Origin: Bacteroidota bacterium
Lineage (GTDB): Bacteria; Bacteroidota; Bacteroidia; B-17B0; Aurantibacillaceae
Assembly (NCBI GenBank): GCA_029237825.1
Contig: JAQZBQ010000004.1
Coordinates: 1-64,000, forward strand
Direction: 5' to 3'
DNA: 64,000 bases
Shown here: positions 1 to 5,801 of the stretch, piece after piece
Layout: the number at the start of each line of letters is the position of its first letter
Position numbering within the stretch: position 1 is the stretch's first letter
Program-made: the position numbers and the translations under genes
The notes under the pieces: model-generated
Told to the model about the DNA's origin: nothing
Seen by the model: the letters and a program-made list of their open reading frames with translations, nothing else
Databases searched by the model: none

Positions 1-99
1 AGGGCATGCGCAAGCGGGATGCTTTTATCAGCGGTCCGCAGGAATTGCCTATCACAAAATCATAAGCTTTTTGAATACTTTTTGGCTGCAAAAAGTATT
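1..99 (+). repeat. Palindromic repeat, copy 1 (truncated by window start)
   Basis: Positions 1-63 match the right part of the 102-bp hairpin module found complete at 3145-3246 and 3444-3545. They are followed by the same AAGCTTTTTG spacer and a second hairpin with arms AATACTTTTTG (74-84) and CAAAAAGTATT (89-99) around a GCTG loop. The left arm lies outside the window. One base in the inner stem (GGATGC instead of GGTTGC) differs from the other copies. Confidence 0.85.
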
Positions 100-2234: not shown

Positions 2235-2417
2235 TACTATTTTATCAATCGCAAAAACGCCGGTTTCAGCTTAGTTATTGCACGATTCGGTGTTAACCAA
2301 CGTTAAAACTTTCAGCCAAGGTAAGCAATGTTTTTAGGGAGCATAAGCTTCCGTTGCGTTTGCGTTGTTTTACTGTTTTTTGTTGTCTTTTGCACCTGGC
2401 ATATGAATGCGGTTAAC

Positions 2418-2483
2418 AGATAGTACGTAGATAGTCCGTAGATAGTGCGTAGATAAAGCGTAGATAGTTCGTGTTTAGTGCGT
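2418..2483 (+). repeat. Six tandem 11-bp units, consensus AGATAGTnCGT
   Basis: Consecutive units are AGATAGTACGT, AGATAGTCCGT, AGATAGTGCGT, AGATAAAGCGT, AGATAGTTCGT and a degenerate GTTTAGTGCGT. Position 8 of the unit carries a different base in each of the cleanest copies. The 11-bp period is close to one helical turn. There are no spacers, so this is not a CRISPR array. Confidence 0.85.
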
Positions 2484-2540
2484 GTTTTTGTAGATTTTGA
2501 ATTCGCGAATTGTTAAATTAAAAGTAGGATTTTGTGAATA

Positions 2541-2651
2541 GGGCGTACCGGCGCAAGAGGCAGGCGCCGTCGGGTTTTCGGCACTCGCTTTTTTATTCAC
2601 ACTGCGTGCTTCATAAAAAGAGCTCAAACAACTGCCTCAATCCCTTACGCT
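2541..2651 (+). repeat. GC-rich intergenic repeat module, direct copy
   Basis: This copy begins GGGCGTACCGGCGCAAGAGG, continues CAGGCGCCGTCGGG and ends near CCTCAATCCCTTACGC. The same module, in opposite orientation, occupies 3611-3703. Its tail (CAATCCCTTacGC) resembles the tails of the modules ending at 3069 and 3372, so these are related intergenic elements. Confidence 0.65.
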
Positions 2652-2905
2652 CGGTTTTGATTTAAAAAGAAAATTCATATCGGAGCAGCGCGTTGACGTG
2701 TGAAAATATTACGAAGTGTTAAAAATAAAACATAATCAAAATTGCATGAGTAAATGTGCGGCTGGCTTTGGCCCTTCGGTGTGAACTACTGTTTTTCACT
2801 CCGTTTCTGGGAAGGCTGGCGCGGGAAAAACAGGAGTTGGCGAATGGCCTTGACTTTTTGTTTCTTTTTCGTCAAGGAAAAAGAAATAGGAAAATAGCTT
2901 TTTAA

Positions 2906-3069
2906 AATACTTGTGCCTCCAAAAGTATTGTACCGATCTTGGGCACACCCTACGGGCCGTGCAGAGCTGCGCTCGGTGCCTTCGTCAAAAACTTCGTTTT
3001 CTCCTTGTCAATGCTTCAATCTTTTTATTTGTATCTCATAAAAAGGATTTCCACTGCAATCCCTTGTGC
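2906..3069 (+). repeat. Degenerate hairpin plus GGGCACACCC module
   Basis: A weakened version of the second hairpin (AATACTT at 2906 and AAGTATT ending at 2929) is followed by GTACCGATCTTGGGCACACC, matching the sequence after repeat copy 2. The module ends with AAAGGATTTCCACTGCAATC and CCTTGTGC at 3042-3069, one base different from 3345-3372. About 70 bp of unrelated sequence is inserted in the middle. The large 102-bp palindrome is missing in front of it. Confidence 0.65.
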
Positions 3070-3134
3070 GGGGTCTAACGGAGTATAGCCGTTCACTTTT
3101 ATCACATTTATATCAGCTTCGAAAATTAATGTCT

Positions 3135-3282
3135 TATGTAAAATATGATTTTGTGCAGCAATAGCTGTAAAAGCAACGAAGGGAGGGCATGCGCAAGCGG
3201 GTTGCTTTTATCAGCGGTCCGCAGGAATTGCCTACCACAAAATCATAAGCTTTTTGTATACTTTTTGGCTGCAAAAAGTATT
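3135..3282 (+). repeat. Palindromic repeat, copy 2 (complete)
   Basis: The 102-bp core at 3145-3246 folds on itself. Its outer arms are ATGATTTTGTG and CACAAAATCAT, the next pair GCAAT and ATTGC, and the inner arms GCTGTAAAAGCAAC and GTTGCTTTTATCAGC (one bulge), with TGC-GCAA-GCG possible at the tip. A spacer and a second hairpin (ATACTTTTTG, GCTG loop, CAAAAAGTAT) follow at 3258-3281. The core differs from copy 3 at only two of 102 positions, both unpaired. No transposase lies nearby. Confidence 0.85.
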
Positions 3283-3372
3283 GTACCGAATTTGGGCACA
3301 CCCTTCGGGCCGGGCTTTCCGCTGCAATCTTGCAAGAGGCAGGCAAAGGATTTCCGCTGCAATCCCTTGTGC
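3283..3372 (+). repeat. GGGCACACCC / GGATTTCCGCTGCAATC module
   Basis: This module follows copy 2 directly: GTACCGAATTTGGGCACACC, CTTCGGGCCGGGCTTTCCGC, and then AAAGGATTTCCGCTGCAATC up to CCTTGTGC. It carries the word TTTCCGCTGCAATC twice internally. A shorter relative lies at 2930-3069. I recall similar GGGC-ACCCTTCGGG-CGGGCTTTCCGCT elements scattered in Flavobacteriia genomes, but could not check this. Confidence 0.65.
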
Positions 3373-3433
3373 TTTCCTCACCCCACAACGGTGTTTTTTA
3401 TTACTCTATATCTACTTTGTAAATAATAGATCG

Positions 3434-3581
3434 TATGTAAAATATGATTTTGTGCAGCAATAGCTGTAAAAGCAACGAAGGGAAGGCATGCGCAAGCGGG
3501 TTGCTTTTATCAGCGGTCCGCAGGAATTGCCTATCACAAAATCATAAGCTTTTTGAATACTTTTTGGCTGCAAAAAGTATT
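3434..3581 (+). repeat. Palindromic repeat, copy 3 (complete)
   Basis: The core at 3444-3545 has the same three nested stems as copy 2, and both copies share the ten bases TATGTAAAAT just before the core. The second hairpin has arms AATACTTTTTG (3556-3566) and CAAAAAGTATT (3571-3581) and runs into a stretch of eight T. On the plus strand this last part looks like an intrinsic terminator. The GGGCACACCC module does not follow here. Confidence 0.85.
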
Positions 3582-3610
3582 TTTTTTAGTTTTTTGTTCT
3601 TGATTTTTTG

Positions 3611-3703
3611 CGTGAAGGATGCAAGCGGAAATCTCCCGCATTTTTCATGCGGGAATTGAAGCGACAGCCTGACGGCGCCTGCATTTTGCGCCGGCACGCC
3701 CCA
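3611..3703 (-). repeat. GC-rich intergenic repeat module, inverted copy
   Basis: Read on the minus strand this is GGGGCGTGCCGGCGCAAAAT, then GCAGGCGCCGTCAGG, ending in CATCCTTCACGC: the same module as 2541-2651 in the other direction. A clean hairpin CCCGCAT (3635-3641) / ATGCGGG (3647-3653) sits inside. It lies 39 bp past the selD stop codon and would be in the 3' end of the selD transcript. Confidence 0.65.
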
Positions 3704-3742
3704 ATCAAAATTAGTTTTACAAGGTTTAAAATGTTAATCCTG

Positions 3743-4771
3743 CTAAATCAACACAATCTTCTTGTCTTGTTGGGGTACAAGCCTTCCAACCTTCACAAAA
3801 TACTGTTGCTGAGAATTCAGAAAGGTGTCCATTTCAAGTTCATAATCCGAAGCCACGCTAAACAATAGCCCCCCCGAAGTTTGCGGATCGCAGAAGAAAA
3901 TAAAATCAAGATCCGTCATTCCTCCAATGTGTTTTGACTGAGCATTGTAATTGCGGGTGGTGTTATCCGGAAACACAAATTGTTTACCAAACTCCTTCGC
4001 AACGTCCATCACCGGCACTGCCGCTTTATCAATGCGGGCAGTTAAATTACTTTCTCCTATCATTTCCAGCAGATGCCCTGCAAAACCAAACCCTGTAATA
4101 TCGGTCATGCCGTGTACGTACGGCAGTTCACCCAGTTTTGTTCCAATGGAATTTAGCTGTGTAGTTTGATCTAGTAATACATTATAGCCCTCTGCATTCA
4201 ATAAACCCCTCTTTAAAGCTGTGCTAAGGATGCCAATTCCTAATGGTTTGGTCATGTATAACACATCGGATTCTTTAAGCGAATTATTTCGTTTAATGTG
4301 TTCTTTTTTTACTGTTCCTGTAACTGCAAGGCCAAACAAGGGTTCCTGGGTATCCACGCTATGTCCGCCAGCAAGGGGAATACCTGCTTTTGTGCAAATT
4401 GCCTGCGCCCCTTTAATAACCTGTTGCGCTACCGCCGTAGGAATTTTGTCTACCGGCCATCCAAGGATCGCTATTGCCATCAAAGGTTTACCGCCCATTG
4501 CATACACATCACTAATGGCGTTGCAGGCTGAAATTTTTCCAAAGTCAAAAGCCTCATCCACTATGGGTGTAAAAAAGTCGGTGGTGCTGATGATGCAATT
4601 ACCGTCTTCCGATTCATAAACGGCGGCATCGTCTTTGGTTTCATTACCTACCAGTAGGTTCTGAAAACTCTCGGTTTGTTTGCATCCACTTAAAATTTCT
4701 TCCAATACTGCCGGTGCGATCTTACACCCGCACCCGGAGGCTTTACTATATTGCGTTAATTTAACTGACAT
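3743..4771 (-). CDS. selD: Selenide, water dikinase (selenophosphate synthetase)
   Basis: SelD makes selenophosphate, the selenium donor, from selenide and ATP. The N-terminus LTQYSKASGCGCK matches the family, with catalytic Cys14 and Lys17 (Cys17 and Lys20 in E. coli). The key residue is encoded by TGC, so this is the cysteine form and not a selenoprotein. Glycine-rich AIRS-type motifs (DDAAVY, TTDFFTPIVD, GMTDITGFGF and CDPQTSGGLL) are all present. I chose the ATG at 4771, two bases after the mnmH stop codon; an upstream start at 4789 would overlap mnmH by 17 bp. With mnmH alongside, the selenophosphate is most likely used for selenouridine in tRNA. Confidence 0.95.
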   Translation of the reverse strand: MSVKLTQYSKASGCGCKIAPAVLEEILSGCKQTESFQNLLVGNETKDDAAVYESEDGNCIISTTDFFTPIVDEAFDFGKISACNAISDVYAMGGKPLMAIAILGWPVDKIPTAVAQQVIKGAQAICTKAGIPLAGGHSVDTQEPLFGLAVTGTVKKEHIKRNNSLKESDVLYMTKPLGIGILSTALKRGLLNAEGYNVLLDQTTQLNSIGTKLGELPYVHGMTDITGFGFAGHLLEMIGESNLTARIDKAAVPVMDVAKEFGKQFVFPDNTTRNYNAQSKHIGGMTDLDFIFFCDPQTSGGLLFSVASDYELEMDTFLNSQQQYFVKVGRLVPQQDKKIVLI

Positions 4772-4772
4772 A

Positions 4773-5801
4773 TTAGCTGAGGGTATCAATCACGTGTTTC
4801 ACTTTAAGCGCGTTTGTTCTGGCATCCATTGTGTCTGAAGGTAGCATAATAATAGGTTGTTTCTTTTTCTCGTAGCTGAATTCGTAAGCACGGTCGTAAT
4901 ACATAAGTGAGAGGCGCGCCACCTCATGTAGGTTACCTGCATCAAGATGTTCCATGCATAAACGCGTATTGAGTGAACCAAGTTGTTGCGAGATTTTCAA
5001 TACACAATGCTTGAGCGCATCAATGTCAACTGTTGCATAATCGTTCACAAGCTTTTCAATGCGCAGGTCAAAGGGTATTTCCATTTTAATGATGGTTGCC
5101 TTCGCCATCTGTTTCCATAGGGCTTGCGGTAATTTGTTATACCCGATTGCCTGTGCCTCATCTTCCAGCACAGTTACTTCTGCCGGGTCTATCAATGATA
5201 GCTGATGGAAGAGTTCATGTTCAAATACCTGCTGCGGGTTTTGTTTTTTTTCATTAATTCCTCCAAACGCCGAACCTTTATGATTTGCAATGCCTTCCAA
5301 ATCAATAACCTGTGTTTGCAATGCCCGAAGTTCTTTCAATAGATCTGTTTTTCCGCTGCCTGTTCGTCCGCCCAGTAAAATAAATTTCCTTTCGTGCTCA
5401 AAATCAGATAACACAAAATTGCGGAAAGCTTTATACCCGCCTTTCATAATACAGGCGTCCAAACCGGCGGTGTTCATCAGCCATGCAAAACTATTGCTCC
5501 GCATGCCGCCCCTGAAACAATACACAAATACTTTTTTATCCTTCGCTAATGTTTTCACGGTATTAACAAACACGGTCATTTTAGGCGAAACTATTTCTAG
5601 CCCCCTGTTAACAGCGGTATCTTTTCCCTGTTGTTTATAGAGTGTGCCAATTTCCGCGCGCTCGCTGTCTTCAAATAACGGAATGTTCACGGCATTGGGA
5701 ACATGCCCCTTATCAAATTCAATGGGCGCCCTCACATCAACAATCAATTTGCCTTTGCTCTGGCTTAAAAAATCTCCAACTTCTTTGGCGCTTACAATCA
5801 T
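4773..5801 (-). CDS. mnmH: tRNA 2-selenouridine synthase
   Basis: MnmH (SelU, YbbB) replaces sulfur by selenium at the wobble 2-thiouridine of Lys, Glu and Gln tRNAs, using selenophosphate and passing through a geranylated intermediate. Residues 1-130 are a rhodanese domain with the catalytic cysteine at 95 in VYCFRGGMRS. A P-loop domain follows, with Walker A GGRTGSGKT at about 144-152. The length of 342 aa fits the family (about 360). It is the first gene of a two-gene operon with selD. A TAGCTTCG sequence five bases before the ATG is one mismatch from the TAnnTTTG -7 box. Confidence 0.95.
   Translation of the reverse strand: MIVSAKEVGDFLSQSKGKLIVDVRAPIEFDKGHVPNAVNIPLFEDSERAEIGTLYKQQGKDTAVNRGLEIVSPKMTVFVNTVKTLAKDKKVFVYCFRGGMRSNSFAWLMNTAGLDACIMKGGYKAFRNFVLSDFEHERKFILLGGRTGSGKTDLLKELRALQTQVIDLEGIANHKGSAFGGINEKKQNPQQVFEHELFHQLSLIDPAEVTVLEDEAQAIGYNKLPQALWKQMAKATIIKMEIPFDLRIEKLVNDYATVDIDALKHCVLKISQQLGSLNTRLCMEHLDAGNLHEVARLSLMYYDRAYEFSYEKKKQPIIMLPSDTMDARTNALKVKHVIDTLS

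What the first reader, a model, noticed from the sequence alone, without database searches (positions are those of the whole stretch)
3135..3581. Nested-hairpin repeat family of 102-bp cores, likely a mobile palindromic element or structured RNA
Seen: two complete copies (cores 3145-3246, 3444-3545) and a truncated third (1-63). Each core has three nested stems, about 30 base pairs in 102 bases, with a GCAA tetraloop possible at the tip and a second hairpin (AATACTTTTTG/CAAAAAGTATT) always 10 bases behind. Copies 2 and 3 differ at two unpaired bases only. Inference: either a non-autonomous REP/MITE-like element moved by an unlinked transposase (such as a RAYT) or a conserved RNA. No coding gene lies inside.
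Basis: partly seen in the sequence, partly recalled or inferred. Interest (0 to 1): 0.65.

Follow-up and report, generated by a model that had tools for sequence, protein, structure and literature searches.

The report
Folded-end mobile repeat of Bacteroidia
The hairpin repeat is one half of a short, gene-less mobile DNA element that has spread within the genomes of many related Bacteroidia, and evolution has kept its folded shape while changing its letters; what moves it is unknown.

Summary
In detail: cores at 3145-3246 and 3444-3545, a third cut by the contig start, each followed by a hairpin. It is not a local duplication. The own genome has 9 near-complete and 11 partial or cut copies. 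A covariance model finds the family in 27 of 100 genomes, the own one included and one hit probably chance. The fold is a three-way junction with strong covariation: 38 of 45 pairs change on both sides, 567 such cells against 158 in shuffles. No Rfam family reached its gathering score on the core in the loci scanned. The trailing hairpin is a terminal inverted repeat: an inverted partner lies upstream in 39 of 79 copies, and 33 delimited units are 313-502 bp, median 417, without detectable target duplication. The left half is another strong nested hairpin; in the window Flavo-1 (RF01705) stands there. The 1.4 kb array is absent between selD and dxs in three relatives. Best reading: a non-autonomous, MITE-like element with folded ends. 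RAYT is not supported: the own genome has no PF01797 match, and 39 of 40 Y1 loci fetched from carriers lack the element. The mover is unknown.

The parts
3144..3247 (+). Core of copy 2: P1 3144-3155/3236-3247, P2 3158-3162/3227-3231, P3 3164-3177/3201-3215, P4 TCCGCAGGA between P3 and P2
3257..3282 (+). P5 of copy 2: right terminal hairpin, which also stands where the left terminal hairpin of the next unit would be
   Evidence: the shared role is inference
3443..3546 (+). Core of copy 3: P1 3443-3454/3535-3546, P2 3457-3461/3526-3530, P3 3463-3476/3500-3514
   Evidence: (171.7 bits with P5)
3556..3581 (+). P5 of copy 3: right terminal hairpin
1..99 (+). Copy 1, core part 1-63 and terminal hairpin 74-99, cut by the contig start
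3304..3377 (-). Flavo-1 motif (RF01705), 42.0 bits, at the left-half place of unit 3, on the strand opposite to the core
3008..3059 (-). Partial Flavo-1 match (25 bits, below the gathering score of 42) at the left-half place of unit 2
3605..3678 (+). Flavo-1 motif, 38.6 bits (below the gathering score), beyond unit 3, opposite orientation to the other two
2905..2931 (.). Degenerate terminal hairpin left of unit 2
2812..2886 (+). Weak R2 match (22.5 bits, E 0.0048), in a stretch that recurs in other repeat loci of the genome; may be no more than a terminal hairpin
3256..3581 (+). Unit 3 as a whole (terminal hairpin to terminal hairpin), 326 bp
   Evidence: unit limits partly inference
2305..3735 (.). 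Approximate extent of the repeat array that is absent between selD and dxs in G004, G005 and G019
   Evidence: limits by eye

Best explanation
The repeat is the right half of a non-autonomous, gene-less mobile element of Bacteroidia, MITE-like in build. A full unit is about 0.3-0.5 kb and is bounded by inverted hairpins (P5 is the right one). The right half carries a three-way-junction fold kept by covariation; the left half is another nested hairpin. An enzyme acting in trans, not identified, recognises the folded end as a single strand and copies or moves the unit into intergenic DNA without target-site duplication. Shown: dispersal, covarying fold, inverted terminal hairpins, matching outer ends in seven copies of one genus, absence of the array in three relatives. 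Inferred: single-strand recognition, an enzyme in trans, and that Flavo-1 takes the left-half place in this genus.
For: Multi-copy in the own genome. 27 of 100 genomes by covariance model, own included, up to 12 matches per other genome; G021 looks like chance. Nearest copy is in the same genome for 66 of 85; 150-nt downstream flanks have median identity 60.0% in same-genome pairs, 58.7% between genomes and 59.3% against shuffled partners. Fold: 94.8% of cells paired, 38 of 45 pairs with changes on both sides, 567 such cells against 157.9 shuffled and 61-124 when slid. P2, not in model R1, shows 73 cells against 22.2; in 82 of 87 readable copies its 5' strand has its exact complement just before P1', in 7 sequence types. 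122 G-U against 27 A-C cells on the + strand. Ends: inverted P5-type hairpin upstream in 39 of 79 copies, same orientation in 9 of 79 (Fisher p 2.7e-7). In 7 copies from G053 and G060 similarity starts and stops at these hairpins (by eye). selD-dxs gap about 100 bp in G004, G005, G019 against 1521 bp here.
Against: No transposase was tied to it and no autonomous version was found. No target-site duplication (4.21 against 4.36 permuted), which a classic DDE MITE would show. 40 of 79 copies have no recognised left hairpin, and in the six G013 copies the left ends do not agree. Window units have Flavo-1 at the left place. 35 of 220 same-genome flank pairs exceed the shuffled 95th percentile, 11 expected, so some copies travel in larger repeated units. 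The absent-array comparison removes the whole array, rests on 3 of 19 relatives (selD is not within the fetched flank of dxs in the other 16), and loss in those three is possible. The G032/G026 case includes a gene. Some covariation measures do not beat shuffles: further pair types (238 of 500 as high; 77 of 500), pairs with a double change (143 of 500). Left half: core-model hits on its opposite strand are weak, and one of similar size (26.7 bits) comes from a terminal hairpin alone; it folds well on both strands (z -6.07 and -7.41).
Confidence: 0.72

Rival explanations
1. A BIME- or TIR-type palindromic element moved by a Y1 HUH (RAYT, TIRYT or IS200-like) transposase that is or was present in the lineage.
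For: Inverted hairpin pairs, no target duplication, single-strand fold. PF01797 is found in 21 of 26 element-bearing genomes. PMC3733652 (abstract and passages seen) describes RAYT-like genes flanked by TIRs, with dispersed TIR families, and says that repeats and transposase genes are not obviously correlated.
Against: No Y1 match in the own genome, G004, G016, G018 or G050, which carry 16, 2, 9, 1 and 2 model hits. Y1 is not significantly enriched (21 of 26 against 48 of 74, Fisher p 0.15). Of 40 Y1 loci fetched from 18 element-bearing genomes (of 56 Y1 matches in all 21 carriers with Y1; most with about 1.5 kb on each side, some cut by contig ends), 39 have no copy; the exception is G062:C99. 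No constant GTAG or CGTC tag seen by eye.
Confidence: 0.17
2. A conserved small RNA gene family (trans-acting or structural) that happens to be multi-copy.
For: RNA-grade covariation and G-U over A-C bias. A -7-like box TAnnTTTG occurs in 12 of 89 copies, 6.1 expected by shuffling.
Against: P5 is followed by a T-run in 2 of 89 copies and an A-run in 54, so it is no ordinary intrinsic terminator. None of the 12 boxes has a -33 partner at the expected distance. Copies stand in all orientations to genes. Copy number varies widely and 7 of 20 genomes of the genus have no match at E 0.001.
Confidence: 0.1
3. A cis-regulatory leader or 3' UTR element.
For: Intergenic place; 4 of 90 overlap an ORF of at least 100 aa.
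Against: Downstream ORF on the same strand in 31 of 82; no neighbouring protein common to the copies.
Confidence: 0.03
4. Simple local duplication, as in the reader's own refutation clause.
For: Tandem units in the window and in C21.
Against: Near-complete copies on 6 contigs of the own genome and partial ones on 3 more; model matches in 26 other genomes, 25 without G021; compensatory changes.
Confidence: 0.01

Closest known systems
MITEs of bacteria
   Same: Short, gene-less, inverted terminal repeats, dispersed, multi-copy
   Different: No target-site duplication detected; ends are hairpins, one joined to a covarying three-way-junction fold; no parent transposon known
REP/BIME elements with RAYT transposases, and the TIR families of TIRYTs (PMC3733652, abstract and passages seen)
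   Same: Inverted palindromes in intergenic DNA, mosaic arrays, hairpins
   Different: Unit is 313-502 bp against 20-40 bp REPs; no GTAG/CGTC tag seen by eye; own genome has no Y1 match; no Y1 gene flanked by it in 39 of 40 loci fetched
Flavo-1 RNA motif, RF01705 (PMC2864571, passages seen; its table marks it as probably an RNA, in Bacteroidetes)
   Same: Structured motif of Bacteroidetes; physically interleaved with the core in the window and next to it in G002 and G017 loci
   Different: Different sequence and fold; its hits lie beside, not on, the core
T-shaped terminal repeats of ssDNA replicons such as parvoviruses (recalled, no call)
   Same: Multi-branched folded terminal repeat
   Different: No replicase or capsid genes; only a likeness of shape, not tested

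Membership tests
MITE | Short, non-coding, no transposase gene inside | tested here: met
   33 units of 313-502 bp; 4 of 90 cores overlap an ORF of at least 100 aa; no common neighbour protein
MITE | Terminal inverted repeats | tested here: met
   39 of 79 inverted against 9 of 79 direct; aligned ends. 40 of 79 copies lack a recognised partner
MITE | Target-site duplication | tested here: not met
   Longest shared flank repeat 4.21 against 4.36 permuted, 162 of 200 permutations at least as high
MITE | Dispersed copies with unrelated flanks | tested here: met
   Flank identity 60.0% against 58.7-59.3% background; 35 of 220 pairs above the shuffled 95th percentile
MITE | A parent autonomous transposon with the same ends | not tested
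   No systematic search for a transposase flanked by these ends was run; only Y1 loci were checked
REP/BIME moved by RAYT | Y1 (RAYT) gene in the host genome | tested here: not met
   PF01797: 0 matches in the own genome; the search rings in 5 of 14 control genomes
REP/BIME moved by RAYT | GTAG or CGTC tag beside the hairpin | tested here: not met
   By eye on the 33 rows: no constant tag
REP/BIME moved by RAYT | Inverted palindromes, mosaic arrays | tested here: met
Flavo-1 RNA (RF01705) | Core reaches the family's score | tested here: not met
   Flavo-1 hits lie beside, not on, the core
Known Rfam family | A match on the core at the gathering score | tested here: not met
   20 loci and the window array scanned up to E 5, 2 and 1, the whole window at gathering scores. 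A sub-threshold MicX hit (24.1 of 75 bits) overlaps one degenerate copy in L156
Structured non-coding RNA | Compensatory base changes | tested here: met
Structured non-coding RNA | Discrete transcript with promoter and end | tested here: inconclusive
   No consistent promoter or terminator pattern; no expression data available
Retroelement | Reverse transcriptase in the host | tested here: not met
   PF00078: no match in the own genome, G016, G032 or G053; 12 of 26 carriers have one
Integron attC site | Integron integrase and R/L boxes | not tested
   Considered only; no integrase search was run

The most novel reading that the evidence does not exclude
The element's ends must fold, as RNA or as single-stranded DNA, into multi-branched structures to be mobilised by an unknown enzyme that is neither a Y1 transposase nor a reverse transcriptase. 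This would be a new class of mobile element with folded, covarying terminal modules, perhaps an inverted pair of one module as the head-to-head cores of G062 suggest, and the Flavo-1 'RNA' would be one type of its left half rather than an RNA gene.
Probability: 0.22. Interest if true: 0.8.

Novelty: new variant of a known kind. Interest (0 to 1): 0.6.

Why it matters
It is a structured family with no Rfam match in what was scanned, found here in 27 of 100 genomes (own included, one hit doubtful). Its right half shows RNA-grade covariation although the whole looks like mobile DNA. That makes a clear question testable: which enzyme reads a folded three-way junction. It also offers an explanation for Flavo-1, marked as probably an RNA in 2010 (PMC2864571), whose hits in Flavobacterium psychrophilum were reported as lying indistinctly sense or antisense to transcribed regions, many of them not transcribed (PMC9723704, passage seen): Flavo-1 may be part of mobile mosaic repeats. 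Copies also sit at or near several contig ends (C1, C15, C16, C21, C23), so they matter for assembly.

Tried and rejected
Coding: the core stays open in some copies but has stops or frame-breaking indels in others (by eye), and changes follow base pairs, not codons. RAYT: not supported for the own genome. Reverse transcriptase: no match in the own genome or G016. 3'-anchored 5' truncation as a sign of retroposition: dropped, because 5'-only partial copies exist too. Plasmids: three element types; phages: two element types; blastn, no match. Viral contigs: one exact pattern, 0 hits. A pattern scan of genome contigs gave 28 stretches; I take those in uncultured Bacteroidetes or Bacteroidia records as likely real and the others as likely chance 20-mers; this was not checked. 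P5 as terminator: not supported. A common neighbour gene: in 84 loci (25 largest clusters printed) the widest clusters are repeat-derived frames; the widest ordinary-looking one covers 9 loci. A clean single-unit empty site: tried with L139 (G032) and L136 (G013); not clean.

Left half as a copy of the core: I first read the R2 hits so. The alignments show mainly the terminal hairpin and a few P3-like pairs, without the conserved junction, and a terminal hairpin alone gives 26.7 bits (L133 990-1058). I withdrew this and lowered the novel reading from 0.30 to 0.22; the main odds stay, since the statement now claims less.

Rows dropped: and the P2 count leave out 7 of 102 rows of A2 (false, chimeric or strongly deleted matches); and the flank control leave out 12 of 102 (also cut copies), 13 of 102. 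A1 holds 26 of the copies then known. A3 used 54 of 81 sources and keeps two cut copies. One search's loose pattern includes a few probable chance hits (L136, L166). Of one search's 33 units, L009:153, L011:2185 and L129:1015 are doubtful. Counts on A2 and A3 come from alignments fitted to the model; the P2 test and A1 (MAFFT) are not fitted to the tested pairs, but the rows are related, so shuffles overstate significance. One search used Infernal's stricter filters and scored 32 first-look candidates per genome, so misses are possible.

Full report
1. The observation. The window is bases 1-64000 of contig C15 of a 3.55 Mb genome in 33 contigs. Two cores (3145-3246, 3444-3545) and one cut by the contig start (1-63) are there as described, each followed by the AATACTTTTTG/CAAAAAGTATT hairpin. 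Copies 2 and 3 differ at two unpaired bases. They lie between selD (3743-4789, minus) and dxs (266-2221, minus), with mnmH beyond (NCBIfam). Single copies fold moderately better than shuffles, on both strands.

2. Not local. A DNA search of the own genome gives 20 places: 9 cover at least 110 of the 126 query bases, one is cut at the contig start, 10 are partial. Pattern searches with up to 3 mismatches give 17 places for the 3' part and 9 for the 5' part, on both strands, with 0 for the reversed-pattern controls. DNA similarity reaches 11 of 100 genomes, own included. A covariance model from 26 copies reaches 27 of 100, own included: 13 of 20 genomes of the genus, 12 of 41 others of the family, 2 of 39 outside the family. 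One of these, G021, looks to me like a chance match and is not counted among the 26 carriers below.

3. The fold. Comparative analysis gives P1 (12 bp), an internal loop, P2 (5 bp), and a three-way junction with P3 (14 pairs, large loop) and P4 (3 bp to a long hairpin), then P5. On the MAFFT alignment of 26 copies, 94.8% of cells pair and 92 cells change on both sides against 26.7 in shuffles and 3-20 when slid. On 66 matches from many genera it is 94.8%, 38 of 45 pairs and 567 cells against 157.9. P2 was predicted by RNAalifold on the first alignment and was not in the model used for the second; there it shows 90.4% pairing and 73 cells against 22.2, though the counts of pairs and of pair types do not beat shuffles. 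In 82 of 87 copies where the 5' strand could be read, its exact complement stands within 14 nt before P1', in seven versions such as GCAAT/ATTGC, GAGAT/ATCTC and GCGAT/ATCGC (a first count without the position rule gave the same 82). In stems the + strand has 122 G-U, 27 A-C and 155 other mismatched cells, so the + strand is the likelier one to fold; G-T is also the milder mismatch in DNA, so this does not decide between RNA and ssDNA. Extra short palindromes sit in or near loops and junctions of several copies (L052, L054, L058, L059, L171, L173; by eye); in L054:5673 one replaces the 5' strand of P2.

4. The ends. An inverted P5-type hairpin lies upstream of the core in 39 of 79 copies with 700 nt on both sides, against 9 in the same orientation upstream, and 10 same and 9 inverted downstream (Fisher 2.7e-7). 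In seven copies from G053 and G060, similarity begins at the left hairpin (GTCACTTTTTG..CAAAAAGTAACC in most) and stops at the right one (GGTTACTTTTG..CAAAAGTGAC), with unrelated sequence outside apart from A-rich or T-rich runs; six G013 copies in the same call agree at the right end but not at the left. 33 units measured this way are 313-502 bp, median 417, and no direct repeat flanks them. The left half is itself a strong nested hairpin: in L146 z is -6.07 on the minus and -7.41 on the plus strand. Weak hits of the core model on its opposite strand (17.7-34.7 bits in 8 of 9 units outside the window) rest mostly on the terminal hairpin, so kinship of the two halves is not shown. In G062 two clear cores stand head to head (92.2 and 71.9 bits; 134 identical positions over 182 and 190 bases); they may be the two halves of one unit or two neighbouring copies.

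5. The window array. Flavo-1 (RF01705) scores 42.0 bits at 3304-3377 (-), 38.6 at 3605-3678 (+) and 25.0 at 3008-3059 (-); its gathering score is 42, and the gathering-threshold scan of the whole window listed none. Flavo-1 also stands upstream of the core on the opposite strand in two G002 loci (L023, L032), which have a second Flavo-1 hit downstream. In G017 it lies downstream of a core, again on the opposite strand (L157). I infer that in this genus Flavo-1 often takes the left-half place and that tandem units share a terminal hairpin. In G004, G005 and G019, selD and dxs are neighbours with about 100 bp between them, and the sequence just upstream of dxs is recognisably the same; in the other 16 relatives selD is not in the fetched flank. 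The array is thus an insertion here or a loss in all three; I take insertion as likelier.

6. Mobility. The nearest copy is in the same genome in 66 of 85 cases. Median core identity within a genome reaches 97% (G032), 94% (G013) and 93% (G053). Downstream flanks of 150 nt have median identity 60.0% in 220 same-genome pairs, 58.7% in 3521 pairs between genomes and 59.3% against shuffled partners; 35 of the 220 exceed the shuffled 95th percentile where 11 are expected, so some copies share more than the unit (G080, G059 and G002 stand out). Gene context is mixed: 27 convergent, 31 codirectional, 11 divergent of 69. No neighbouring protein is common to the copies.

7. The mover. Y1 transposases (PF01797) are in 69 of 100 genomes but in none of G000, G004, G016, G018 or G050, which carry the element; 21 of 26 carriers against 48 of 74 others, p 0.15. 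Of 56 Y1 matches in the 21 carriers that have any, I fetched 40; 39 have no core in the stretch and one, G062:C99, has two cores about 2.5 kb away. Reverse transcriptase (PF00078) is in 35 of 100 genomes, in 12 of 26 carriers, and not in the own genome. An enzyme acting in trans, lost or not yet recognised, is my reading; DDE, IS110-type, tyrosine recombinase and RNA-guided systems were not tested.

8. In print. Eight searches for Flavo-1 and for Bacteroidetes interspersed or structured repeats listed no paper that, by title and abstract start, describes this element. I saw passages of PMC2864571, PMC9723704 and PMC3733652; the other papers only in listings. The library holds open-licence papers only, so absence there is weak evidence.

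Noticed in passing
L023, L032, L157, window 3304-3377: Flavo-1 (RF01705) lies next to the element in three genomes, mostly on the opposite strand, which suggests that Flavo-1 may be part of mobile mosaic repeats rather than an RNA gene.
   Followed up: partly
L052, L054, L058, L059, L171, L173: Short palindromes (for example TCCCG..CGGGA types) sit in or near loops and junctions of the fold, as if small palindromes insert at hairpin tips or survive mostly there.
   Followed up: no
L009:12457-12514, L009:415-462, L016:1961-2014; downstream of the cores in L134 and L135: A second type of unit shares only the right end (P2', P1', P5) behind a different hairpin, in two separate lineages.
   Followed up: no
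L139 (G032:C62) against L200/L206 (G026:C1): Between a GNAT-like gene and leuS, G032 has one extra gene followed closely by a copy of the element; G026 lacks both. Gene names here are by eye, no family search.
   Followed up: partly
L223:325-506 and 614-803 (G062:C99): Two clear cores head to head about 100 bp apart, with a third partial copy at 13-99 and a Y1 transposase match at 3341-3685.
   Followed up: partly
window 2418-2483: An 11-bp tandem repeat (AGATAGTNCGT) in the inserted stretch; L011:2436-2509 matches window 2494-2421 in inverted orientation.
   Followed up: no
window 2532-2580 and 3662-3710: A 49-nt GC-rich inverted repeat, 82% complementary, brackets most of the array.
   Followed up: no
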